This document shows, in pieces, positions 1 through 8,043 of a stretch of DNA of 8,043 nt. Both the position numbers and the translations under genes were made by a program. The stretch lies in assembly GCA_030616195.1 (NCBI GenBank), contig JAUWXW010000061.1, forward strand, positions 1 through 8,043, read 5' to 3'. Source of the stretch: Chloroflexota bacterium. GTDB taxonomy: Bacteria > Chloroflexota > Dehalococcoidia > RBG-13-53-26. The stretch's first letter is position 1, and the number at the start of each line of letters is the position of its first letter. Under the pieces are notes generated by a model. The model was not told where the DNA came from. It saw only the letters and a program-made list of their open reading frames with translations, and searched no databases.

Positions 1-123
1 AAGTCTAACATTTTACCTGGACCGATTTCCGGGGGGCAGGTCACTATGACGACTCTGGTTATTCCACCGGAGAACTATGTGGAAGTCGATGAGCACAAGC
101 TCATCTGGTATAGAAGGAAGTAG
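1..123 (+). CDS. 3' end of an unrecognised protein gene (partial)
   Basis: Frame 1 is open from the first base to a TAG at 121-123, giving the last 40 residues of a protein whose start lies outside the window. Both other + frames are closed early, at 5-7 or thereabouts and at 46-48. The tail contains PENYVEVDEHKLIWYRRK, an ordered charged/aromatic ending with a basic C-terminus that looks like real coding sequence. I do not recognise the family. A 66-base gap separates it from the truncated flavin-oxidoreductase fragment, so it may be the last intact gene upstream of a rearranged stretch. No function is proposed. Confidence 0.4.
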   Translation, partial: KSNILPGPISGGQVTMTTLVIPPENYVEVDEHKLIWYRRK

Positions 124-298: not shown

Positions 299-305
299 AG
301 GAGGT
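299..305 (+). promoter_or_regulatory. Shine-Dalgarno site that fixes the first SDR start
   Basis: AGGAGGT lies 7 bases upstream of ATG 313. An in-frame GTG at 304-306 overlaps this site and so cannot be the start it serves. This is why the CDS is taken from 313. Confidence 0.85.
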
Positions 306-312
306 GCTAAAG

Positions 313-1071
313 ATGGGTAAGCTAGATGAAAAGGTGGCTTTGATTACTGGAGCCGGGTCTGGAATCGGGCGAGCTACTGCCCTTCTCTTTGCCGCGGAAG
401 GTGCTAGAGTGGCAGTCGCCGATTGTGTTCCGGCAGGAGGGCAGGAAACGGTCAGGATGATCAAGGAGGCCGGGGGCGAGGCTATCTTTATTGAGGTTGA
501 TGTCTCCAAAGCGGCCGATGTGGAAAGGATGGTCAAGACAACTGTGGATACGTATGGACGAATAGACATCCTTCACAACAACGCCGGTATTCAAGGAGCC
601 TTTACCCCCACAACGGACGTCAAGGAGGAGGATTGGGACACTATCATCAACACTAACCTTAAGGGTATCTTTCTCGGTTCAAAGTATGCCATTCCGGTGA
701 TGCTCAACCAGGGTGGGGGCGTCATCGTCAATACTACCTCTGCTGCCGGCATAGTGGGAATACCATATGTGGCTGCTTATTGCGCTTCCAAGGGAGGAGT
801 CATCCAGCTAACTAAATCAATGGCCTTGGAATATGCCGGGCAGAACATTCGGATCAATTGTGTTTGCCCCGGCGGAGTTCAGACGCCCATGATGGAGCAG
901 TGGATACCGACTGATGCTGAAGCTCGAGCGGCGTTTATGCAGGCACTGCCCGCGGGGAAAGCGATACAGCCAGAGGAGATCGCTCGAGCTGTTCTCTACT
1001 TGGCGTGTGACGATTCCTCATCTGCCATGGGATCGGTCTTGGTAATCGATCGTGGCTGGACAGTTGCGTAA
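313..1071 (+). CDS. Short-chain dehydrogenase/reductase (SDR), first tandem copy
   Basis: A 252-residue cytosolic classical SDR, the usual length for the family. In order: the cofactor-binding TGAGSGIG at residues 12-19; an acidic residue at the end of beta-2 (D37 in VAVADC), which favours NAD over NADP; D63 in the VDV motif; NNAG at 89-92; then the catalytic set N115, S143, Y156 and K160 (YCASK), with the standard 13-residue Ser-Tyr spacing; and CPGGVQTPM after the active site. Members oxidise secondary alcohols or reduce ketones, and many are labelled 3-oxoacyl-ACP reductase (FabG-like) by default. The substrate is not readable here. The nearby ketone-carboxylase genes make a secondary-alcohol dehydrogenase attractive (inference). 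One oddity is the C-terminus IDRGWTVA, where the family normally has DGG. The second copy keeps DGGW. The next SDR starts 63 bases downstream in the same direction, probably on the same transcript. Confidence 0.93.
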   Translation: MGKLDEKVALITGAGSGIGRATALLFAAEGARVAVADCVPAGGQETVRMIKEAGGEAIFIEVDVSKAADVERMVKTTVDTYGRIDILHNNAGIQGAFTPTTDVKEEDWDTIINTNLKGIFLGSKYAIPVMLNQGGGVIVNTTSAAGIVGIPYVAAYCASKGGVIQLTKSMALEYAGQNIRINCVCPGGVQTPMMEQWIPTDAEARAAFMQALPAGKAIQPEEIARAVLYLACDDSSSAMGSVLVIDRGWTVA

Positions 1072-1128: not shown

Positions 1129-1134
1129 GTGCTA

Positions 1135-1917
1135 ATGGTGGGCAAGTTAGATGCAAAAGTGGCTTTGATTACTGGAGCCGGATCTGGAATCGGGCGAGCC
1201 ACCGCTTTTCTCTTCGCCGGAGAAGGTGCTAAAGTGGCGGTCGCTGATTGCGTTCCGGCAGGAGGCCAGGAAACGGTCAGGATGATCAAGGAGGCTGGGG
1301 GCGAGGCCTTCTTTATTGGGGTTGATGTTTCCAAAGCGGCCGATGTGGAAAGGATGGTCAAGACAACTGTGGACACATATGGGCGTATCGACATCCTTTA
1401 CAACAATGCTGGCATTACCGGGACAATCGCCCCCACGGCGGACCTCACGGAGGAGGACTGGGACCTCGTCCTCGACACCAACCTTAAGAGTGTCTTTCTC
1501 GGTTCAAAGTATGCCATCCCGATAATGATTAATCAGGGTGGAGGCGTCATCATCAGCACTTCATCTACTATGGGACTGGGCGGAAAAACAACTATAGCTC
1601 CTTATTGTGCCTCCAAGGCGGGAATCGCCCTGTTGACCAAAACAATGGCTGCGGAATATGCCAGCCAAAACATTCGGGTCAACTGCATTTGCCCGGGTAT
1701 GATTGCAACAGCAATGACAGAATCCTGGATTCCGGCACTTCAGATGCAATTTATACCCCTGGGAGGAACAGCAGGACGGGCAGAGGATGTCGCTCGAGCT
1801 GCTCTCTACCTGGCGTGCGATGATTCCGCCTATGTCACCGGGACAGCCCTGGTAGTCGACGGTGGCTGGACAGCCGAGGTAATATTGCCTTTCAAAGAAC
1901 TGCCTGCCCAGGAGTGA
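1135..1917 (+). CDS. Short-chain dehydrogenase/reductase (SDR), second tandem copy
   Basis: A 260-residue classical SDR and paralogue of the preceding gene. It has TGAGSGIG at 13-20, D38 closing beta-2 (NAD preference), NNAG at 90-93, and catalytic N116, S144, Y157 and K161 (YCASK). The canonical DGGW follows near the C-terminus, then an extra tail (EVILPFKELPAQE) that the first copy lacks. Over the first ~92 aligned residues the two copies differ at only 7 positions. From residue 94 to the WIP motif identity falls to about 60% (my hand count), and the loop after the active site, which normally shapes the substrate pocket, differs strongly (CPGMIATAMTESW against CPGGVQTPMMEQW). The pair therefore probably shares a cofactor but not a substrate or stereochemistry. 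An alcohol dehydrogenase or ketone reductase role beside the carboxylase operon is inferred. A FabG-like or bile-acid-type hydroxysteroid dehydrogenase role cannot be excluded. Confidence 0.94.
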   Translation: MVGKLDAKVALITGAGSGIGRATAFLFAGEGAKVAVADCVPAGGQETVRMIKEAGGEAFFIGVDVSKAADVERMVKTTVDTYGRIDILYNNAGITGTIAPTADLTEEDWDLVLDTNLKSVFLGSKYAIPIMINQGGGVIISTSSTMGLGGKTTIAPYCASKAGIALLTKTMAAEYASQNIRVNCICPGMIATAMTESWIPALQMQFIPLGGTAGRAEDVARAALYLACDDSAYVTGTALVVDGGWTAEVILPFKELPAQE

Positions 1918-2489: not shown

Positions 2490-3719
2490 ATGAGACATAG
2501 GTGGAAGAAAGTGGTTTTATCCTGTCTTATGGTGTTAGCCCTGGTGGCCACGCTCGGCCTCGGCTGCGGCGAGGACGAGGAAGAGGAGAAGGTGACCATA
2601 ACCATAGGACACTTGACAGACGTTGCGGGACCAGCCGGATCAGCGCTCAAGCCTATTGTAAACTCGCTTATTGATCAGGTTAAGGATTTCAACGAGAAAG
2701 AGGTTATCCCGGGGGTAGAGATAAAAGTAGTGGTCTATGATACCAAGTACGACCCTTCCAGGTTTATCCCTGGCTATAACTGGGCAAGAGATAGGGGTGC
2801 AACGGTAATCTCCACTGAGATGGGCGAGGTTGGAATAGCACTGAAAGCCTTTGCAGAGAGAGATAAACTCCCGGTGTACTGCTACACTGGCATGGAGTCC
2901 ATAATAGATCCTCCCGGATGGGTGTTTTGCGCCAACCCTATTCAGGAATGGCAGGTGAGGGCTACCCTGAAATATGTCGGTGAGCAGTGGGAGGCTCTTG
3001 AGATGGGAAGGCCGGCCAAGATTGGTCTTGTCAGTTGGGATTCCCCCACCTTCTACGAGTATGAGGCGGGGATGGACTACGCCACGGATCACCCGGAGAC
3101 GTTCGATTACGTTGGCGGTTACGCCACTCCGATGGGTGGCCTGACCTGGTCTGGTGAGGTAGCCAAGCTGAAAGACTGCGACTATGTAATGATAGCCGCC
3201 ATTGGCGGGCTGATGCCGGCCACTTTTGCAAAAGAGTTTCGAGACAAGGAAGAAGTACATGCCACGTTTCTGGGCACCGACGCCGTAGCTGCTTTCAAAA
3301 GCCTGCTGATTGACAAGGTTGGCTGGGAAGACATGGACGGGACTATCACCGTGCATGGCTGGACATGGTGGACGTACGACTCCCCGGTCGTGGATTATGT
3401 TATCGACATCCTTGAGAAATACCGCCCCGATGAAGTTGAGGAGACGATAGCGTCAGGCATAGGGGGCATAGGTGGAGGCGTTCAGGTGTATCTCTACCTT
3501 GATGTGCTGCGGCAGGCAATAGAAGCAGTAGGCGCTGAGAACTTCGATGGCCAGGCTTTCTATGACGCAGCCGAGAACTTTAGCGCCACATGGGAAGGCT
3601 TTAAGGAAGCAAGCTGGTCTCCGACCAAGCGCTACGCATCGGATTGGTCCAACCTGTGGGAGTGGGATGCGGACGTAGAAGACCTGGTGTTTATCAAGTG
3701 GGTGGAGGTCATTAAGTAA
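2490..3719 (+). CDS. ABC transporter substrate-binding lipoprotein, LivJ-like type 1 periplasmic-binding fold
   Basis: 409 residues. The N-terminus is a lipoprotein signal: MRHRWKK, a hydrophobic stretch from about residue 8 to 24, then LGLGC with C26 as the likely lipidated cysteine, although the -3 residue is Gly rather than the usual Leu. A strongly acidic linker (GEDEEEEK) follows. The mature domain opens with VTITIGHLTDVAGPAGS, the first strand and ligand loop of branched-chain amino-acid-type binding proteins (Peripla_BP_6), and runs to the C-terminus in the usual two-lobe length. The protein would sit on the outer face of the membrane and deliver a solute to an ABC permease. No permease or ATPase gene is in the window, so it is an orphan here. 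Binding proteins of this type in catabolic clusters often take aromatic or carboxylated compounds, and the protein is rich in Trp and Tyr, but the ligand cannot be read. A decayed paralogue follows directly. Confidence 0.92.
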   Translation: MRHRWKKVVLSCLMVLALVATLGLGCGEDEEEEKVTITIGHLTDVAGPAGSALKPIVNSLIDQVKDFNEKEVIPGVEIKVVVYDTKYDPSRFIPGYNWARDRGATVISTEMGEVGIALKAFAERDKLPVYCYTGMESIIDPPGWVFCANPIQEWQVRATLKYVGEQWEALEMGRPAKIGLVSWDSPTFYEYEAGMDYATDHPETFDYVGGYATPMGGLTWSGEVAKLKDCDYVMIAAIGGLMPATFAKEFRDKEEVHATFLGTDAVAAFKSLLIDKVGWEDMDGTITVHGWTWWTYDSPVVDYVIDILEKYRPDEVEETIASGIGGIGGGVQVYLYLDVLRQAIEAVGAENFDGQAFYDAAENFSATWEGFKEASWSPTKRYASDWSNLWEWDADVEDLVFIKWVEVIK

Positions 3720-3747
3720 GAAAGCTGCTTCGGAAGCTTCAGCTTTC
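3720..3747 (+). terminator. Stem-loop directly after the solute-binding protein stop
   Basis: GAAAGCTG (3720-3727) and CAGCTTTC (3740-3747) are perfect 8-base reverse complements. The 12-base loop can itself pair as CTT-CGG-AAG. The structure starts at the base after the stop codon. Only CTATT follows rather than a T-run, so it may terminate weakly, or protect the 3' end and insulate the binding-protein message. Confidence 0.4.
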
Positions 3748-3805
3748 CTATTGACGCACAGGGTGGCCACTGTCACCCGGGCTGCGCCTCCCCACGGGGT
3801 CTTAA

Positions 3806-4025
3806 AGAAAGGCAATCGAGGAGGTGGCCGCTGAGAACTTCGACGGTCAGGCTTTCTATGATATGGCTGTGAAGTTCAGGCCGCGCTGGGAAGGCTATCC
3901 GGAAGAAGTTGGCTGGAGCCCGACCGACCGACTCTCGTCCAAGTGGTAGATGATATTATGAATACAGTGACGCGGTGGGCGATTTTGTGGTAGCTACAAG
4001 CTGGGTGGAGGTCATAGAAGAATAA
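3806..4025 (+). pseudogene. Decayed C-terminus of a second LivJ-like substrate-binding protein
   Basis: Read from 3806, this encodes RKAIEEVAAENFDGQAFYD and continues to WSPTDRLSSKW. It aligns with residues of the intact upstream gene encoded from 3510 (RQAIEAVGAENFDGQAFYD ... WSPTKRYASDW). AENFDGQAFYD is identical in both. After KW an in-frame TAG stops translation. One extra base shifts to a frame that contains a further TGA (3952 region) and then reads EYSDAVGDFVVATSWVEVIEE to TAA 4023-4025, matching the intact ending (DLVFIKWVEVIK). The remnant thus has a frameshift, a nonsense codon, no N-terminal four-fifths, and a TAA just before 3806. It is a tandem paralogue mostly lost by deletion. 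The divergence from the intact copy shows it is not a recent or assembly duplicate. Confidence 0.85.
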
Positions 4026-4122
4026 AGGCAGGCGGCTCTGGCCCTCTTTCCGAAAGTGGCGCAAACAGGGAAAGGAAAAGGATCTCGGCCTTGTTGTAAC
4101 CGGTGCCAACCAAATGGACTTC

Positions 4123-4143
4123 CCTGTCCCACTGGCTGCTCTC
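4123..4143 (+). repeat. Short repeat, copy 2 (partner at 2287-2307)
   Basis: This copy carries one extra C and a C-to-T change relative to the first copy. It lies 66 bases upstream of the CoA-transferase start, in the 184-base gap after the binding-protein remnant. The remainder of that gap has no coding signal I can support. Confidence 0.4.
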
Positions 4144-4151
4144 ACCTCTCA

Positions 4152-4170
4152 GCCTAGCCAGCGACTAGGC
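4152..4170 (+). other. Small hairpin in the leader of the CoA-transferase operon
   Basis: GCCTAG (4152-4157) and CTAGGC (4165-4170) form a perfect 6-base-pair stem with a 7-base loop, ending 26 bases before the Shine-Dalgarno site AGGAGGT (4196-4202). No T-run follows directly. It might be a leader structure or an inverted-repeat operator half-pair. A chance occurrence is possible. Confidence 0.3.
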
Positions 4171-4209
4171 GTGGTTGACTGAAAAATACTTAGTCAGGAG
4201 GTAGAACAA

Positions 4210-5433
4210 ATGGCAAAGGGAGTTTTTGACGGGGTCAAGATTATTGAGTTCGGCCACTTTCTGCTGGTGCCCACCGCTACTGTTATCCTTGCCGATTGGG
4301 GTGCAGACGTCATCAAAATAGAGAATTTCAGGGCAGGTGGGGACCCAACGCGGTTTCCTCAAGCTATAGAGGGGCAACCGCCACCAGCCGACATCAAGCC
4401 CAGTATGTGGTTCCATTACTTCAATCGGAACAAGAGAGGCATAGCTCTCAATGTCATGACGGAGCGCGGCAGGGAAATACTGTACAAGCTGGTGGAGAAA
4501 GCAGATGTGTTTGCCACCAATTTTGACCCGCGCGCCATCGAAAGAGCCAAGGCCGACTACGATACCCTCAGCAAGATAAACCCCGGGATTATCTACCTTC
4601 AGTGCAGTGGTTATGGTACTGTTGGCCCTGATAGACATAAGCCCGGCTTTGACTACGCAGCCTGGTGGGCCAGGAGCGGAATGATGGACAGAATATCGGG
4701 TCCCGGTGAAGCGCTGCGTCCGCAGCGACCGGGTTTGGGTGATAACCTGGCCTCTCCAGGTATCGCAGGAGCTATTGCCGCGGCCCTCTATTGTCGGGAG
4801 AAAACGGGCGTGGCGCAGAAGGTGGAAATCAACCTTTATCATATGGCGGTCTGGGGGTTACAGTTTGATATCGGCACCGCCCTTCATCAGGGTGTTAACC
4901 TTAAGCAGACGGATAGAGGAAGTGTCACCAACGCGTTGTGGAATTGCTATCAAGCCAAAGACGGGAAGTGGATAATGCTGGTCATGCCGCAGACGGACCG
5001 GTACTGGCCTTCCTTTTGTAAGGCAATAGGGAAGCCTGAATGGGAAAAAGACCCCAGGTTTGATTCTCATATGAAGAGGATGGAGCAGAACATGACCCTG
5101 ATAGGGGCGCTGGATGAGATGATGGCCAGCAAAGACGCTGCGGAGTGGGAAGCAATAGCTCAGGAGTTTGATTTGGTGTTGGGACGCATTCAAACCCCCG
5201 TGGAGGTGGCTAATGACCCGCAGGCCTGGGAAAACGACTTCTTCACGGAAGTGGAGTATGCCCCCGGTGTGCCACTTAAGGTAATAAATAGCCCTGTGAA
5301 GTTCAGCAAGACCCCGGCCATCATAAAGTCTCTTGCCCCCGAGCTGGGGCAACATACAGAGGAAGTCCTGTTGGAGCTTGGTTATACCTGGGATGATATG
5401 GCTGGGCTCAAGGAGGAAGGCACGATTCTTTAG
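4210..5433 (+). CDS. CaiB/BaiF family (class III) CoA-transferase
   Basis: 407 residues, the normal length for the family, with AGGAGGT 7 bases before the ATG. The N-terminus GVKIIEFGHFLLVPTATVIL...DWGADVIKIE (about 8-38) is the family's CoA-binding Rossmann start. FHYFNRNKRGIALN (68-81) and CSGYGTVGPDRHKPGFDYAA (132-151) are typical blocks, and GD at 177-178 places D178 as the likely catalytic aspartate that forms the acyl-anhydride/CoA-thioester chain of intermediates. AAALYCREKTGVAQKVEINL follows, as expected. These cytosolic enzymes move CoA from one acyl-CoA to another carboxylic acid. The stop lies 11 bases before the carboxylase subunit start, so the likely acceptor is the carboxylation product, a beta-keto acid (inference). 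The AAWWARSGMM stretch has Trp where many members have Gln; I recall a similar form in transferases for aromatic acids such as benzylsuccinate, so an aromatic substrate is possible. Donor and acceptor cannot be determined from the sequence. Confidence 0.95.
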   Translation: MAKGVFDGVKIIEFGHFLLVPTATVILADWGADVIKIENFRAGGDPTRFPQAIEGQPPPADIKPSMWFHYFNRNKRGIALNVMTERGREILYKLVEKADVFATNFDPRAIERAKADYDTLSKINPGIIYLQCSGYGTVGPDRHKPGFDYAAWWARSGMMDRISGPGEALRPQRPGLGDNLASPGIAGAIAAALYCREKTGVAQKVEINLYHMAVWGLQFDIGTALHQGVNLKQTDRGSVTNALWNCYQAKDGKWIMLVMPQTDRYWPSFCKAIGKPEWEKDPRFDSHMKRMEQNMTLIGALDEMMASKDAAEWEAIAQEFDLVLGRIQTPVEVANDPQAWENDFFTEVEYAPGVPLKVINSPVKFSKTPAIIKSLAPELGQHTEEVLLELGYTWDDMAGLKEEGTIL

Positions 5434-5444
5434 AAGGAGGCTAA

Positions 5445-7625
5445 ATGGGCATATGTCATCGGGGTAAGACGTTAAAGGAAGTGGTGGATGACAAGGAGCG
5501 ACTTTTCAGGGAAACCGGTTGCGCCTACGGGCTGGAGAAACTTGAGTTAGTCGAAGGTGACCCGGCCAAGTTCATGAGGTTCCAGATGAGGTTGGTGGCT
5601 GCCTGCATAAATGCCAGGGAGATGGCCAAGTTGATATCAGCCAATCCCATGTCCCTGATCCAGGGCGAGCTATTGTTCCTGCTGGCGACTCCAGAGGGGG
5701 ACGTTACCTCCGCTTCATATGGGCTGGCGGGGCATATCCAAGCCTTTCCGTTTATGGTCCGTTCCATAGCTGAACTGGGCTTTGAAGACGACCCTGAAAT
5801 CAACGTGGGGGATGTCTTCTTCAACAATGATGGCTTCTATGGGGCACCCCATAACGCAGACTGTTACAACTTTGTGCCGATCTTTTACAAAGATGAGCTG
5901 ATTGGCTGGACGGTGGGGCTGAACCACATTGTCGATGTGGGGGGTCTCCAGCCTGGCGGTCTGGGGATGATTTCGCCCAGTGTTTTCACCGATGGCTTTA
6001 CCGTTCCGCCTACCAAAATAGGGGGGAATTTCAAGACGTATAAGTGGTGGGAGCTGCACTGGAAGAGGCGAACGCGAACAGAGGCCTTCAACGTCCTGGA
6101 TGATAAGATGAGAACCGCCGGAGCGGTGTCGCTTCATGACCGGATCCTGGACATTGTGGAGGAGTTTGGGATTGACTACTACAGGAGGGGTGTGAAGGAG
6201 ATCATTGAGCGGGAGAGGAGGTTACTGGTACAGAGGATCAAAACCCAGGCAGTGCCGGGAATATATCAGTACCTTCACCTCAACATGGTGAAGTACAAAG
6301 GGGTGGTGGGAAAGCTGTTTGCCGGCTCCAACAGGGACTGGCTGCTTCATGAGCCCGGGGAACTTCAAGTTCTCCCCGATGGCCGGCTGTTCATGGACCT
6401 GGAAGGGTTGACCAGTGAAGGCGATTTTCACTGCAACGGCTATGAGTCTGCGGTGAGGATGCTGACCTCGCTGGGCTGCTGGCCCATGTTCGCCTACACC
6501 TCCACCCTCAACTCCTCGCTGATGTACATGACCGAGTGGAACATAACCCCCGGCAGCATGTTCAACCCGCAGAACCCCTTTGCGGCCACAGTTATGTCTC
6601 TTGCCGAAATCGGCAAATACATCGCTATGTTCCATAATTGCCTGAGCTACGCATTCTTTGCCAGAGGCTACATGGAGGAGTGTTTCCCGCAAGATAGCTG
6701 TGGCGTTGGTTACGGGCTGGCCGGTGTGATGGCTGACGGATTTCGATGGGCTGGCGGGGACATGACCCTTATCACCTGTTGGAGTGAGGGCGCCATGCCC
6801 TACAAAGACGGTCTTTCTGCCGCAGTCTGTTCACCCAACCCGGCACCAGACATGGGTGAGGCTGAGCTGGCTGAATTCATACAGCCAACGAATTTGAATA
6901 TAGGCAGGAAGCTGATACACAACTATTGCGGACATGGTAAGTACAGAGGTGGGCTGGGAATAGGCATGTGCCAGATGATTACTGATCCGGGGCAATCTTT
7001 AATCATAGCCGTTTTTGCCTCCACCAACGGGATGGGCCGGTCCGGTACGGGGATGTGCGGTGGATATCCGGGAGTGAACGATGTTATTGTCTTCGCCCAC
7101 GACACCAACATGAGGGAGATTATAAAGGAGGGCAAGCCTTATCCGACCGATTTCATTGAGATCAGAGAGTGGCTCAAAGACGGGAGGTTGAAGGCTGGGA
7201 GTGTGGAGGTTTTCAAAGGGGCTACACCCAACATTCAGTGCCAGGACGGCGACCTATTTGCCAGTACCTCAGGTTGCCGGGGTGGCTGGGGCGATGTCTT
7301 GGAGAGGGACTTCAGCCTGGCGGAGAACGATGTGAAGTACGGCTGGGTTGCGGCGGATGTGGCGGAGACTGTTTATGGGGTGGTAACCGATGAGAACGGC
7401 AAGGTAAAGGCAGCCGAGAGCGATGTGCTGCGGCAGCAGATGCGCAACAGGCGTAAGGAGAGGTCGGTTGATGCCAGGGATTGGTGGCGGCAAGAGAGGG
7501 AACAGGTATTGAGGAAGGGGTGGACTGAAGACGTCTACAATATGTTTGCCGATGCTTTGAAATACGACAAGTTCCGCCGTCAGTTCATGGGGATGTGGCA
7601 GTTACCTGAGGACTACCGCTTATAA
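5445..7625 (+). CDS. Acetone-carboxylase alpha-type subunit (hydantoinase B/oxoprolinase family)
   Basis: 726 residues, close to the size of the alpha (HyuB-like, acxB-type) subunit of ATP-dependent ketone carboxylases. The start has AAGGAGG at 5434-5440, right after the CoA-transferase stop, suggesting coupled translation. The block FFNNDGFYGAPHNADCYNF (125-143) corresponds to the family's NDPY-GG-HL-D motif, and NHIVDVGG (160-167) to its second metal motif. H136, D139 and H161 thus match the Mn ligands I recall for Xanthobacter acetone carboxylase (H150, D153, H175), with the same +3 and +25 spacing. GHGKYRGGLG (496-505) and GCRGGWGDVLERD (610-622) are the family's C-terminal glycine-rich signatures. 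In the known enzymes this subunit joins CO2/bicarbonate to an activated ketone enol in an alpha2-beta2-gamma2 complex. The gamma gene directly downstream argues for ketone carboxylation rather than oxoprolinase or hydantoinase activity. The substrate (acetone, butanone, acetophenone or other) is open. The HyuA-like partner is not in view. Confidence 0.92.
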   Translation: MGICHRGKTLKEVVDDKERLFRETGCAYGLEKLELVEGDPAKFMRFQMRLVAACINAREMAKLISANPMSLIQGELLFLLATPEGDVTSASYGLAGHIQAFPFMVRSIAELGFEDDPEINVGDVFFNNDGFYGAPHNADCYNFVPIFYKDELIGWTVGLNHIVDVGGLQPGGLGMISPSVFTDGFTVPPTKIGGNFKTYKWWELHWKRRTRTEAFNVLDDKMRTAGAVSLHDRILDIVEEFGIDYYRRGVKEIIERERRLLVQRIKTQAVPGIYQYLHLNMVKYKGVVGKLFAGSNRDWLLHEPGELQVLPDGRLFMDLEGLTSEGDFHCNGYESAVRMLTSLGCWPMFAYTSTLNSSLMYMTEWNITPGSMFNPQNPFAATVMSLAEIGKYIAMFHNCLSYAFFARGYMEECFPQDSCGVGYGLAGVMADGFRWAGGDMTLITCWSEGAMPYKDGLSAAVCSPNPAPDMGEAELAEFIQPTNLNIGRKLIHNYCGHGKYRGGLGIGMCQMITDPGQSLIIAVFASTNGMGRSGTGMCGGYPGVNDVIVFAHDTNMREIIKEGKPYPTDFIEIREWLKDGRLKAGSVEVFKGATPNIQCQDGDLFASTSGCRGGWGDVLERDFSLAENDVKYGWVAADVAETVYGVVTDENGKVKAAESDVLRQQMRNRRKERSVDARDWWRQEREQVLRKGWTEDVYNMFADALKYDKFRRQFMGMWQLPEDYRL

Positions 7626-7632
7626 AAGATAG

Positions 7633-7640
7633 AAGGGGGA
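7633..7640 (+). promoter_or_regulatory. Shine-Dalgarno site that supports a GTG start for the gamma subunit
   Basis: AAGGGGGA lies 3 bases before GTG 7644 in the 18-base gap after the alpha-type subunit stop. There is no ATG in this frame until well inside the conserved domain, so GTG is the natural start. Confidence 0.72.
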
Positions 7641-7643
7641 AGC

Positions 7644-8043
7644 GTGGAAAAAAGAGACGACCGTTTCACCAAGGAAAACCTAAGGCTCCTGGTTGAGGGC
7701 AAGCTTGATTGGGAGGAGGTAAAGAAGGCGATTCGTTTGGCCCCCAAGGATGGGGACCGGTTCTGGAAGTATCTGGAGGTGCTGCAAGAAAGGGTTCCCT
7801 GGAAGGACAAGATCCTGCTCCGCGTCTCGGACCACCTGTATATTGTGGCCAAGGAAGGCGGGGACAGGGTGGTGAAGTGCGATTGCGGGCAGGAATTTGG
7901 AGACTACCGGGCCAACTGGAAGCTGAGCTGCCGGGTCTATGTCAGGAAAACCGTTGAGGAGATGGCAGAGGTGGTCTCGGTGGAGGAGGCAGTGCCCAAC
8001 CCGGACCTGGTGGGGATAAGGGAGTTCTACTGCCCGGGATGCT
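7644..8043 (+). CDS. Acetone carboxylase gamma subunit (partial, runs off the right edge)
   Basis: A GTG start followed by 133 visible codons with no stop. A full gamma subunit is about 170 residues, so roughly 20-25% is missing. LRLLVEGKLDWEEVKKAI (13-30), DRFWKYLEVLQERVPWKDKI (39-58), HLYIV (65-69), VVKCDCGQEFGDYRANWKL (76-94) and REFYCPGC at the visible end form the run of motifs I recognise from the AcxC family. The KCDCG pair and the CPGC pair are spaced as a zinc-ribbon-like site. The gamma subunit of the crystallised Xanthobacter enzyme binds zinc as I recall, with no catalytic role of its own but required for the complex. Because the family is restricted to ketone carboxylases (acetone carboxylase, and a relative in acetophenone carboxylase), this gene is the strongest evidence for the function of the operon. 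It is probably cotranscribed with the alpha-type subunit. Confidence 0.93.
   Translation, partial: MEKRDDRFTKENLRLLVEGKLDWEEVKKAIRLAPKDGDRFWKYLEVLQERVPWKDKILLRVSDHLYIVAKEGGDRVVKCDCGQEFGDYRANWKLSCRVYVRKTVEEMAEVVSVEEAVPNPDLVGIREFYCPGC

What the first reader, a model, noticed from the sequence alone, without database searches (positions are those of the whole stretch)
4210..8043. Ketone-carboxylase operon led by a class III CoA-transferase
Seen: CaiB-family gene, HyuB/acetone-carboxylase alpha-type gene and gamma gene with gaps of 11 and 18 bases. Known: acetone and acetophenone carboxylases make beta-keto acids that must be activated to CoA esters; in Aromatoleum acetophenone metabolism a CoA ligase does this, and acetone pathways use a separate CoA-transferase or synthetase. 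Inferred: here a CaiB-type transferase, encoded as the first gene of the same operon, activates the beta-keto acid without spending further ATP. I know of no characterised ketone-carboxylase operon with this exact arrangement.
Basis: partly seen in the sequence, partly recalled or inferred. Interest (0 to 1): 0.72.

Follow-up and report, generated by a model that had tools for sequence, protein, structure and literature searches.

The report
Ketone carboxylase operon with CoA-transferase
An uncultured, probably Chloroflexota, bacterium carries an operon in which an ATP-dependent ketone carboxylase of an untested lineage is paired with a CoA-transferase that probably passes coenzyme A to the freshly made acid, a cheaper way to use ketones than the ligase route and one that related microbes seem to have reached more than once.

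Summary
Observation confirmed: a CaiB-family (class III CoA-transferase) gene at 4210-5433, an AcxB/HyuB-type alpha gene at 5445-7625 and an AcxC-type gamma gene from 7644 (cut by the window end), gaps 11 and 18 bases. In relatives the kinase subunit HyuA lies directly behind gamma, so the probable operon is CaiB-alpha-gamma-HyuA. Alpha keeps the four Mn ligands and gamma the four Zn cysteines of acetone carboxylase. The order alpha-gamma-HyuA marks its own branch of the alpha tree, apart from X. autotrophicus AcxB.

CaiB keeps the catalytic Asp and passes no curated transferase family's cut-off. It stands directly upstream of alpha in 6 of 15 other visible loci, against about 1% expected, but in 0 of 5 at 66-69% alpha identity. 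Ligases, class I transferases or tandem CaiB genes sit by other ketone carboxylases. Activation of the carboxylation product by CaiB is the best explanation (0.6). A HIBADH-like dehydrogenase that goes with CaiB makes a 3-hydroxy acid a serious alternative acceptor. The ketone is unknown. The window starts with the tail of another HyuA: two carboxylase operons in tandem. New variant of a known kind.

The parts
1..123 (+). last 40 codons and stop of an upstream HyuA/AcxA (kinase subunit): end of a first ketone carboxylase operon
   Evidence: 73% identity over 26 aa to the C-terminus of the HyuA of L001, E 1.6e-12; same tandem layout in L106
190..294 (+). N-terminal stub (34 aa) of an old-yellow-enzyme-type reductase, truncated
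   Evidence: 68% identity over 28 aa to the OYE-type protein of L001, E 2.4e-13
304..1071 (+). short-chain dehydrogenase 1
   Evidence: PF13561 E 4.4e-67
1129..1917 (+). short-chain dehydrogenase 2, tandem copy of the first
   Evidence: PF13561 E 6.9e-63; 69% identical to SDR 1
2490..3719 (+). ABC-type substrate-binding protein (start codon at 2490 is my choice; the ORF opens at 2433)
   Evidence: PF13458 Peripla_BP_6 E 3.5e-25; kin beside CaiB in L001, L004, G108
3806..3949 (+). decayed C-terminal fragment of a second substrate-binding protein
   Evidence: 62% identity over 47 aa to the SBP at 2490-3719, followed by stops
4196..4201 (+). Shine-Dalgarno-like AGGAGG before CaiB
   Evidence: read
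4210..5433 (+). CaiB-family class III CoA-transferase, 407 aa, catalytic Asp at residue 178
5434..5440 (+). Shine-Dalgarno-like AAGGAGG before alpha
   Evidence: read
5445..7625 (+). ketone carboxylase metal subunit (AcxB/HyuB type, 'alpha'), 726 aa, Mn ligands E75, H136, D139, H161
   Evidence: 5svb_A E 1.5e-89; PF02538; ligand mapping
7644..8043 (+). ketone carboxylase gamma subunit (AcxC type), cut by the window end; Zn cysteines C79, C81, C130, C133
   Evidence: 5svb_C E 3.6e-28; PF08882; cysteines

Best explanation
The operon encodes an ATP-dependent ketone carboxylase (metal subunit alpha, zinc subunit gamma, and the kinase subunit HyuA expected directly behind gamma) with a dedicated class III CoA-transferase. 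By analogy with X. autotrophicus acetone carboxylase, the carboxylase phosphorylates a ketone enolate and bicarbonate and joins them at the Mn site to a 3-oxo acid. CaiB then moves CoA from a donor thioester, perhaps succinyl-CoA, by way of Asp178 onto that acid or its close derivative. The product goes to thiolysis without the ATP that a ligase would spend. Shown: the genes, their order, the catalytic residues, the recurrence of CaiB beside alpha. Inferred: HyuA in this genome, the acceptor, the donor, the ketone, the direction and the thiolysis.
Against: CaiB absent from the alpha locus in 8 of 15 inner-clade loci, including all 5 at 66-69% alpha identity, and the CaiB of L012 is only a distant relative, so clade CaiB is directly upstream in 5 of 15. 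Only 18 of 52 loci have any of three CoA-activating families within 7 kb on the same strand (single-sequence searches, so misses are possible). An orthologue of CaiB (65% identical) in G004 stands beside a HIBADH-like gene with no carboxylase gene in an 18 kb stretch (L109). Neither acceptor nor donor is known, and HyuA was not seen on this contig behind gamma.
Confidence: 0.6

Rival explanations
1. The carboxylation product is first reduced by the linked 3-hydroxyisobutyrate-dehydrogenase-like (HIBADH-like) enzyme to a stable 3-hydroxy acid, and CaiB activates that acid. This protects the unstable 3-oxo acid from decarboxylation.
For: HIBADH-like genes stand near CaiB in 4 of 4 CaiB-positive loci with enough flank (4 of 5 counting G108) against 1 of 8 CaiB-negative loci, Fisher p 0.010 (0.032), a post hoc test. 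CaiB-HIBADH pair without carboxylase in L109. The family's catalytic Lys (motif recalled) is kept in 9 of 9 rows.
Against: No HIBADH gene inside this window. The known apc operon carries benzoylacetate-CoA ligase, which acts on the 3-oxo acid directly (PMC5214803, passages read). Small sample; several CaiB-negative contigs are short.
Confidence: 0.2
2. CaiB activates another acid of the pathway, for example one imported through the ABC substrate-binding protein, and is only a neighbour of the carboxylase.
For: CaiB genes are numerous, 19-32 matches per genome; a substrate-binding-protein gene lies beside CaiB in the window, L001, L004 and G108; an orthologue lies away from carboxylase genes (L109).
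Against: Close spacing and repeated pairing with alpha; several unrelated CoA-activating families in a like setting.
Confidence: 0.15
3. The module runs in reverse: CaiB takes CoA off a 3-oxoacyl-CoA, keeping the thioester energy, and the carboxylase decarboxylates the acid to a ketone with gain of ATP.
For: PMC5264521 (passages read) says the reverse reaction was shown in vitro (citing Platen and Schink 1990) and discusses a CoA-transferase as source of acetoacetate.
Against: [quoted passage not shown] OYE and SDR neighbours fit ketone use as well.
Confidence: 0.05

Closest known systems
Acetone carboxylase AcxABC (X. autotrophicus, A. aromaticum)
   Same: three subunit types of Acx length, Mn ligands Glu/His/Asp/His, Zn cysteines in gamma
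   Different: gene order alpha-gamma-HyuA (in relatives) instead of acxA-acxB-acxC; separate branch of the alpha tree; CaiB in front
Acetophenone carboxylase ApcABCDE with benzoylacetate-CoA ligase (A. aromaticum)
   Same: ketone carboxylase genes in one operon with the CoA-activating enzyme (PMC5214803)
   Different: a CoA ligase instead of a class III transferase; extra subunits alpha' and epsilon; alpha only E 3.8e-40 to ApcD
Succinyl-CoA:(R)-benzylsuccinate CoA-transferase BbsEF, SUGCT, formyl-CoA transferase Frc
   Different: 22-29% identity; below every NCBIfam cut-off tested; BbsEF has two different subunits, this gene is single
Chloroflexota/Dehalococcoidia acetone carboxylase genes reported in RBG-1351 and DEH-C11
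   Same: same phylum; carboxylase genes reported from genomes (PMC3971608, PMC4959651, passages read)
   Different: the passages seen mention no CaiB neighbour; PMC3971608 suggests a 3-oxoacid CoA transferase without placing it in the operon

Membership tests
Acetone carboxylase (Acx) | AcxB of about 720 aa, about 50 longer than ApcB-type subunits and 150 longer than hydantoinase ones (PMC5214803 section 7) | tested here: met
   726 aa
Acetone carboxylase (Acx) | gamma subunit with four Zn cysteines | tested here: met
   C79, C81, C130, C133 align with the gamma chain of 5svb; C-terminus outside the window
Acetone carboxylase (Acx) | Mn ligands Glu89, His150, Asp153, His175 (PMC5543143) | tested here: met
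   E75, H136, D139, H161
Acetone carboxylase (Acx) | kinase subunit AcxA/HyuA of about 720 aa in the cluster | tested here: inconclusive
   not seen behind gamma because the window ends; directly behind gamma in relatives, e.g. L001 720 aa, 5svb_B E 1.3e-139
Acetone carboxylase (Acx) | gene order acxA-acxB-acxC (PMC5214803) | tested here: not met
   CaiB, not HyuA, directly before alpha here; alpha-gamma-HyuA in 46 of 75 loci examined, HyuA-alpha-gamma in 17, 12 cut or unclear
Acetone carboxylase (Acx) | carboxylates acetone | not testable with these tools
   needs enzyme assay
Class III CoA-transferase (CaiB/BaiF, PF02515) | full-length domain match | tested here: met
   E 4.9e-101, residues 7-383
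Class III CoA-transferase (CaiB/BaiF, PF02515) | catalytic Asp equivalent to Frc Asp169 | tested here: met
   D178; invariant in 32 of 32 rows of A2
Formyl-CoA, carnitine, mesaconate or succinate-glutarate CoA-transferase (NCBIfam equivalogs) | score above the curated cut-off | tested here: not met
   181.7 of 504.2, 111.4 of 413, 146 of 700, 161.8 of 750 bits
Acetophenone carboxylase (Apc) | order apcABCD(E) with alpha' and epsilon subunits | tested here: inconclusive
   no alpha' or epsilon gene recognised in the window, which is cut; alpha scores 147.5 of 1500 bits for ApcD

The most novel reading that the evidence does not exclude
The alpha-gamma-HyuA branch is a distinct, biochemically untested family of ketone carboxylases, and its CaiB-linked clade is an ATP-sparing ketone-assimilation module of energy-limited anaerobes: OYE/SDR enzymes make the ketone, the carboxylase adds CO2, the HIBADH-like enzyme may trap the product and CaiB recycles CoA onto it, so that ketone carboxylation becomes affordable where it was thought too costly.
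Probability: 0.3. Interest if true: 0.72.

Novelty: new variant of a known kind. Interest (0 to 1): 0.52.

Why it matters
Ketone carboxylation costs two or more ATP equivalents and has been held not feasible for sulfate reducers with their small energy budget (PMC7888143, passages read). A carboxylase operon with its own CoA-transferase saves the further ATP of a ligase. It gives a testable account of how uncultured Chloroflexota could use ketones. It also points to a branch of ketone carboxylases, present in Chloroflexota, Bacillota, Gammaproteobacteria and sulfate-reducer relatives, for which I met no characterised member; the three named Desulfobacterota-type loci of the inner clade (L006, L010, L013) have no CaiB before alpha, so the saving is not shown for them.

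Tried and rejected
A relative in viral contigs: 23 stretches matched a pattern, none encoded a relative. A whole genome for the window: none held. The idea that CaiB replaces the kinase subunit because it sits where acxA usually is: rejected, since HyuA follows gamma in relatives. Membership of CaiB among oxalate or carnitine enzymes: rejected. A sigma-70 promoter or a terminator in 3700-8043: nothing above shuffles, 1 promoter-like and 4 terminator-like sites against 2.4 and 3.9 expected. A note written says HyuA lies behind gamma in ALL 52 loci; that was too strong (L046 has HyuA-alpha-gamma, some loci are cut), and the counts stand instead. The labels of the tree were set by locus number for 54 and 20 rows, of which 46 and 17 pass the strict check. 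That tree is the quick kind and warns of long branches, among them both references. In the CaiB tree the least number of label changes that starred branches force is 2 for the copies behind gamma and 1 for those beside alpha, so separate recruitment is likely but not proved. BbsEF, SUGCT and Mct were compared by fold and score only and are not in the CaiB tree. The class surveys scored only the best 4 (CaiB) or 2 (alpha) candidates per genome, and contig-edge fragments such as CaiB of L002 fall below the CaiB cut-off. The contig-length test used the best 120 rows of each list, of 153 alpha and 6496 CaiB matches. Papers: in the held library no paper holds 'acetone carboxylase' with 'CaiB', 'ketone carboxylase' with 'CoA-transferase', or 'acetone carboxylase' with 'class III CoA'; it lacks most subscription journals. 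Searches were seen as listings, and only the six papers cited here were opened (passages, and one section of PMC5214803).

Full report
What is there. The three genes reported are real: CaiB 4210-5433, alpha 5445-7625, gamma from 7644 (cut by the window end), spaced by 11 and 18 bases. Alpha and gamma match acetone carboxylase alpha and gamma in the PDB. By the length rule of PMC5214803 (section 7 read) alpha (726 aa) is of the acetone carboxylase kind, not the acetophenone carboxylase or hydantoinase kind. The Mn ligands Glu89, His150, Asp153 and His175 (PMC5543143, passages read) are E75, H136, D139 and H161 here, and the Zn cysteines of gamma are kept. CaiB keeps the catalytic Asp, D178.

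What the window does not show. The kinase subunit HyuA/AcxA of this operon is not in view. A scan of genome contigs gave 52 loci. In 46 of the 75 loci later checked (window included, as cut), HyuA follows gamma; in 17 it precedes alpha; 12 are cut or unclear. The HyuA of L001 (720 aa) matches 5svb_B nearly end to end. The probable operon is therefore CaiB-alpha-gamma-HyuA. In the alpha tree the rows labelled alpha-gamma-HyuA form one side of a branch with support 100, and X. autotrophicus AcxB falls among the HyuA-alpha-gamma rows (quick method, labels by locus number). PMC5214803 gives acxA-acxB-acxC as the conserved order.

The surroundings. Bases 1-123 are the end of another HyuA and 190-294 a stub of an OYE-type reductase. 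Then come two SDR genes that are 69% identical, a substrate-binding protein and a decayed fragment of a second one. L106, from the genome of L001, shows a like plan in full: the 3' end of an alpha, gamma, HyuA, OYE, SDR, SDR, HIBADH-like, CaiB, SBP, alpha, gamma, HyuA, HIBADH-like, FMN reductase, then the start of a nitronate-monooxygenase-like gene. So the window is the junction of two carboxylase operons in tandem.

Is CaiB tied to the carboxylase? I count 16 inner-clade loci besides the window (alpha score 800 bits or more: L001-L013, G108, G138, G005:C505). The place upstream of alpha is visible in 15 (L003 starts too close). CaiB is directly upstream in 6 (L002, L004, L005, L011, L012, G108), as contig-edge fragments in L002 and L005; in L001 one gene intervenes; in 8 it is absent. 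The CaiB of L012 is only distantly related (224 bits). With 19-32 CaiB matches per genome about 1% would be expected; the binomial value is 1.4e-8 at 0.012, but the loci are related. All 5 visible loci of 72% alpha identity or more have CaiB upstream (4 directly), and none of the 5 at 66-69%. In 393 genomes of one class, alpha at E 1e-60 is found in 24 and CaiB at E 1e-125 in 9. The 6 CaiB hits of 61% identity or more lie in 5 genomes, all with an inner-clade alpha; the 4 hits of 47-49% lie in genomes without an alpha match at that cut-off. In the protein lists, 11 of 32 nearer CaiB homologues on contigs of 4 kb or more share an exact contig length with an alpha homologue, against 0 of 35 farther ones.

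Other solutions of the same problem. L014 and L042 have a class I CoA-transferase directly before alpha (alpha is broken in L042, without gamma or HyuA behind it), and gammaproteobacterial loci L018, L023, L025, L037, L039 and L047 an AMP-forming ligase behind HyuA. In the HyuA-alpha-gamma lineage 6 of 20 fetched regions have two or three CaiB genes in a row behind gamma (in one, L126, with two genes between); 2 of 20 have a class I transferase gene adjacent on the same strand (L123, L134), and one more (L137) has class I genes a few kb away on the other strand. In the 6 loci with tandem CaiB, the first copy lacks the catalytic Asp and the second has it (L126 is the same locus as L046), as one would expect of a heteromer of the BbsEF kind. 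The tree puts these copies outside the window's CaiB clade; those of L118-L121 are its nearer neighbours, those of L046 and L122 lie farther off. Against this, only 18 of 52 loci have any of the three families within 7 kb on the same strand, and a large gammaproteobacterial block shows none; one proteobacterial locus (L050) has an FAA-hydrolase and a zinc-type dehydrogenase gene behind HyuA.

Novelty. Ketone carboxylase operons with a CoA-activating enzyme are known (benzoylacetate-CoA ligase in the apc operon, PMC5214803). A class III transferase in that role I did not find in print in the searches named, and the alpha-gamma-HyuA order is not among those described in PMC5214803. Acetone carboxylase genes in Chloroflexota were reported before (PMC3971608, PMC4959651, passages read). 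This is a new variant of a known kind.

Noticed in passing
L046, L064, L067, L068, L070, L072, L079, L085-L089, L091: 13 alpha rows (L046 and L079 are identical) of the HyuA-alpha-gamma lineage have Met where acetone carboxylase has the Mn ligand His175 (e.g. VIMEMDIG against VTHVIDTG), which may mean another metal or another reaction.
   Followed up: partly
L077, L081, L083, L084: Alpha rows with Asp in place of the Mn ligand Glu89, as in ApcD; these are the loci with tandem CaiB behind gamma.
   Followed up: no
L118-L122, L046: Tandem CaiB genes behind gamma in which the first copy lacks the catalytic Asp and the second keeps it; looks like a heteromeric CoA-transferase, probably recruited separately.
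   Followed up: partly
L107 (G108 contig 89): Two full-length alpha genes in tandem behind CaiB, 11 bases apart.
   Followed up: no
window 1-123 and 190-294: Tail of another HyuA and a truncated OYE stub: remains of a neighbouring carboxylase operon.
   Followed up: yes
window 3806-3949: Decayed C-terminal fragment of a duplicated substrate-binding protein.
   Followed up: partly
L042 and L065 (genome G007): Alpha is split in this chromosome: an N-terminal piece behind a class I CoA-transferase and a C-terminal piece before gamma and HyuA some 600 kb away.
   Followed up: no
L033, L044, L045: Records titled Klebsiella pneumoniae MAG group with uncultured Gammaproteobacteria in the alpha tree; the titles look like mislabels.
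   Followed up: no
L050 4444-6325: In a proteobacterial alpha-gamma-HyuA locus, an FAA-hydrolase and a zinc-type dehydrogenase gene follow HyuA instead of a CoA enzyme; genes of like length follow in related loci.
   Followed up: partly
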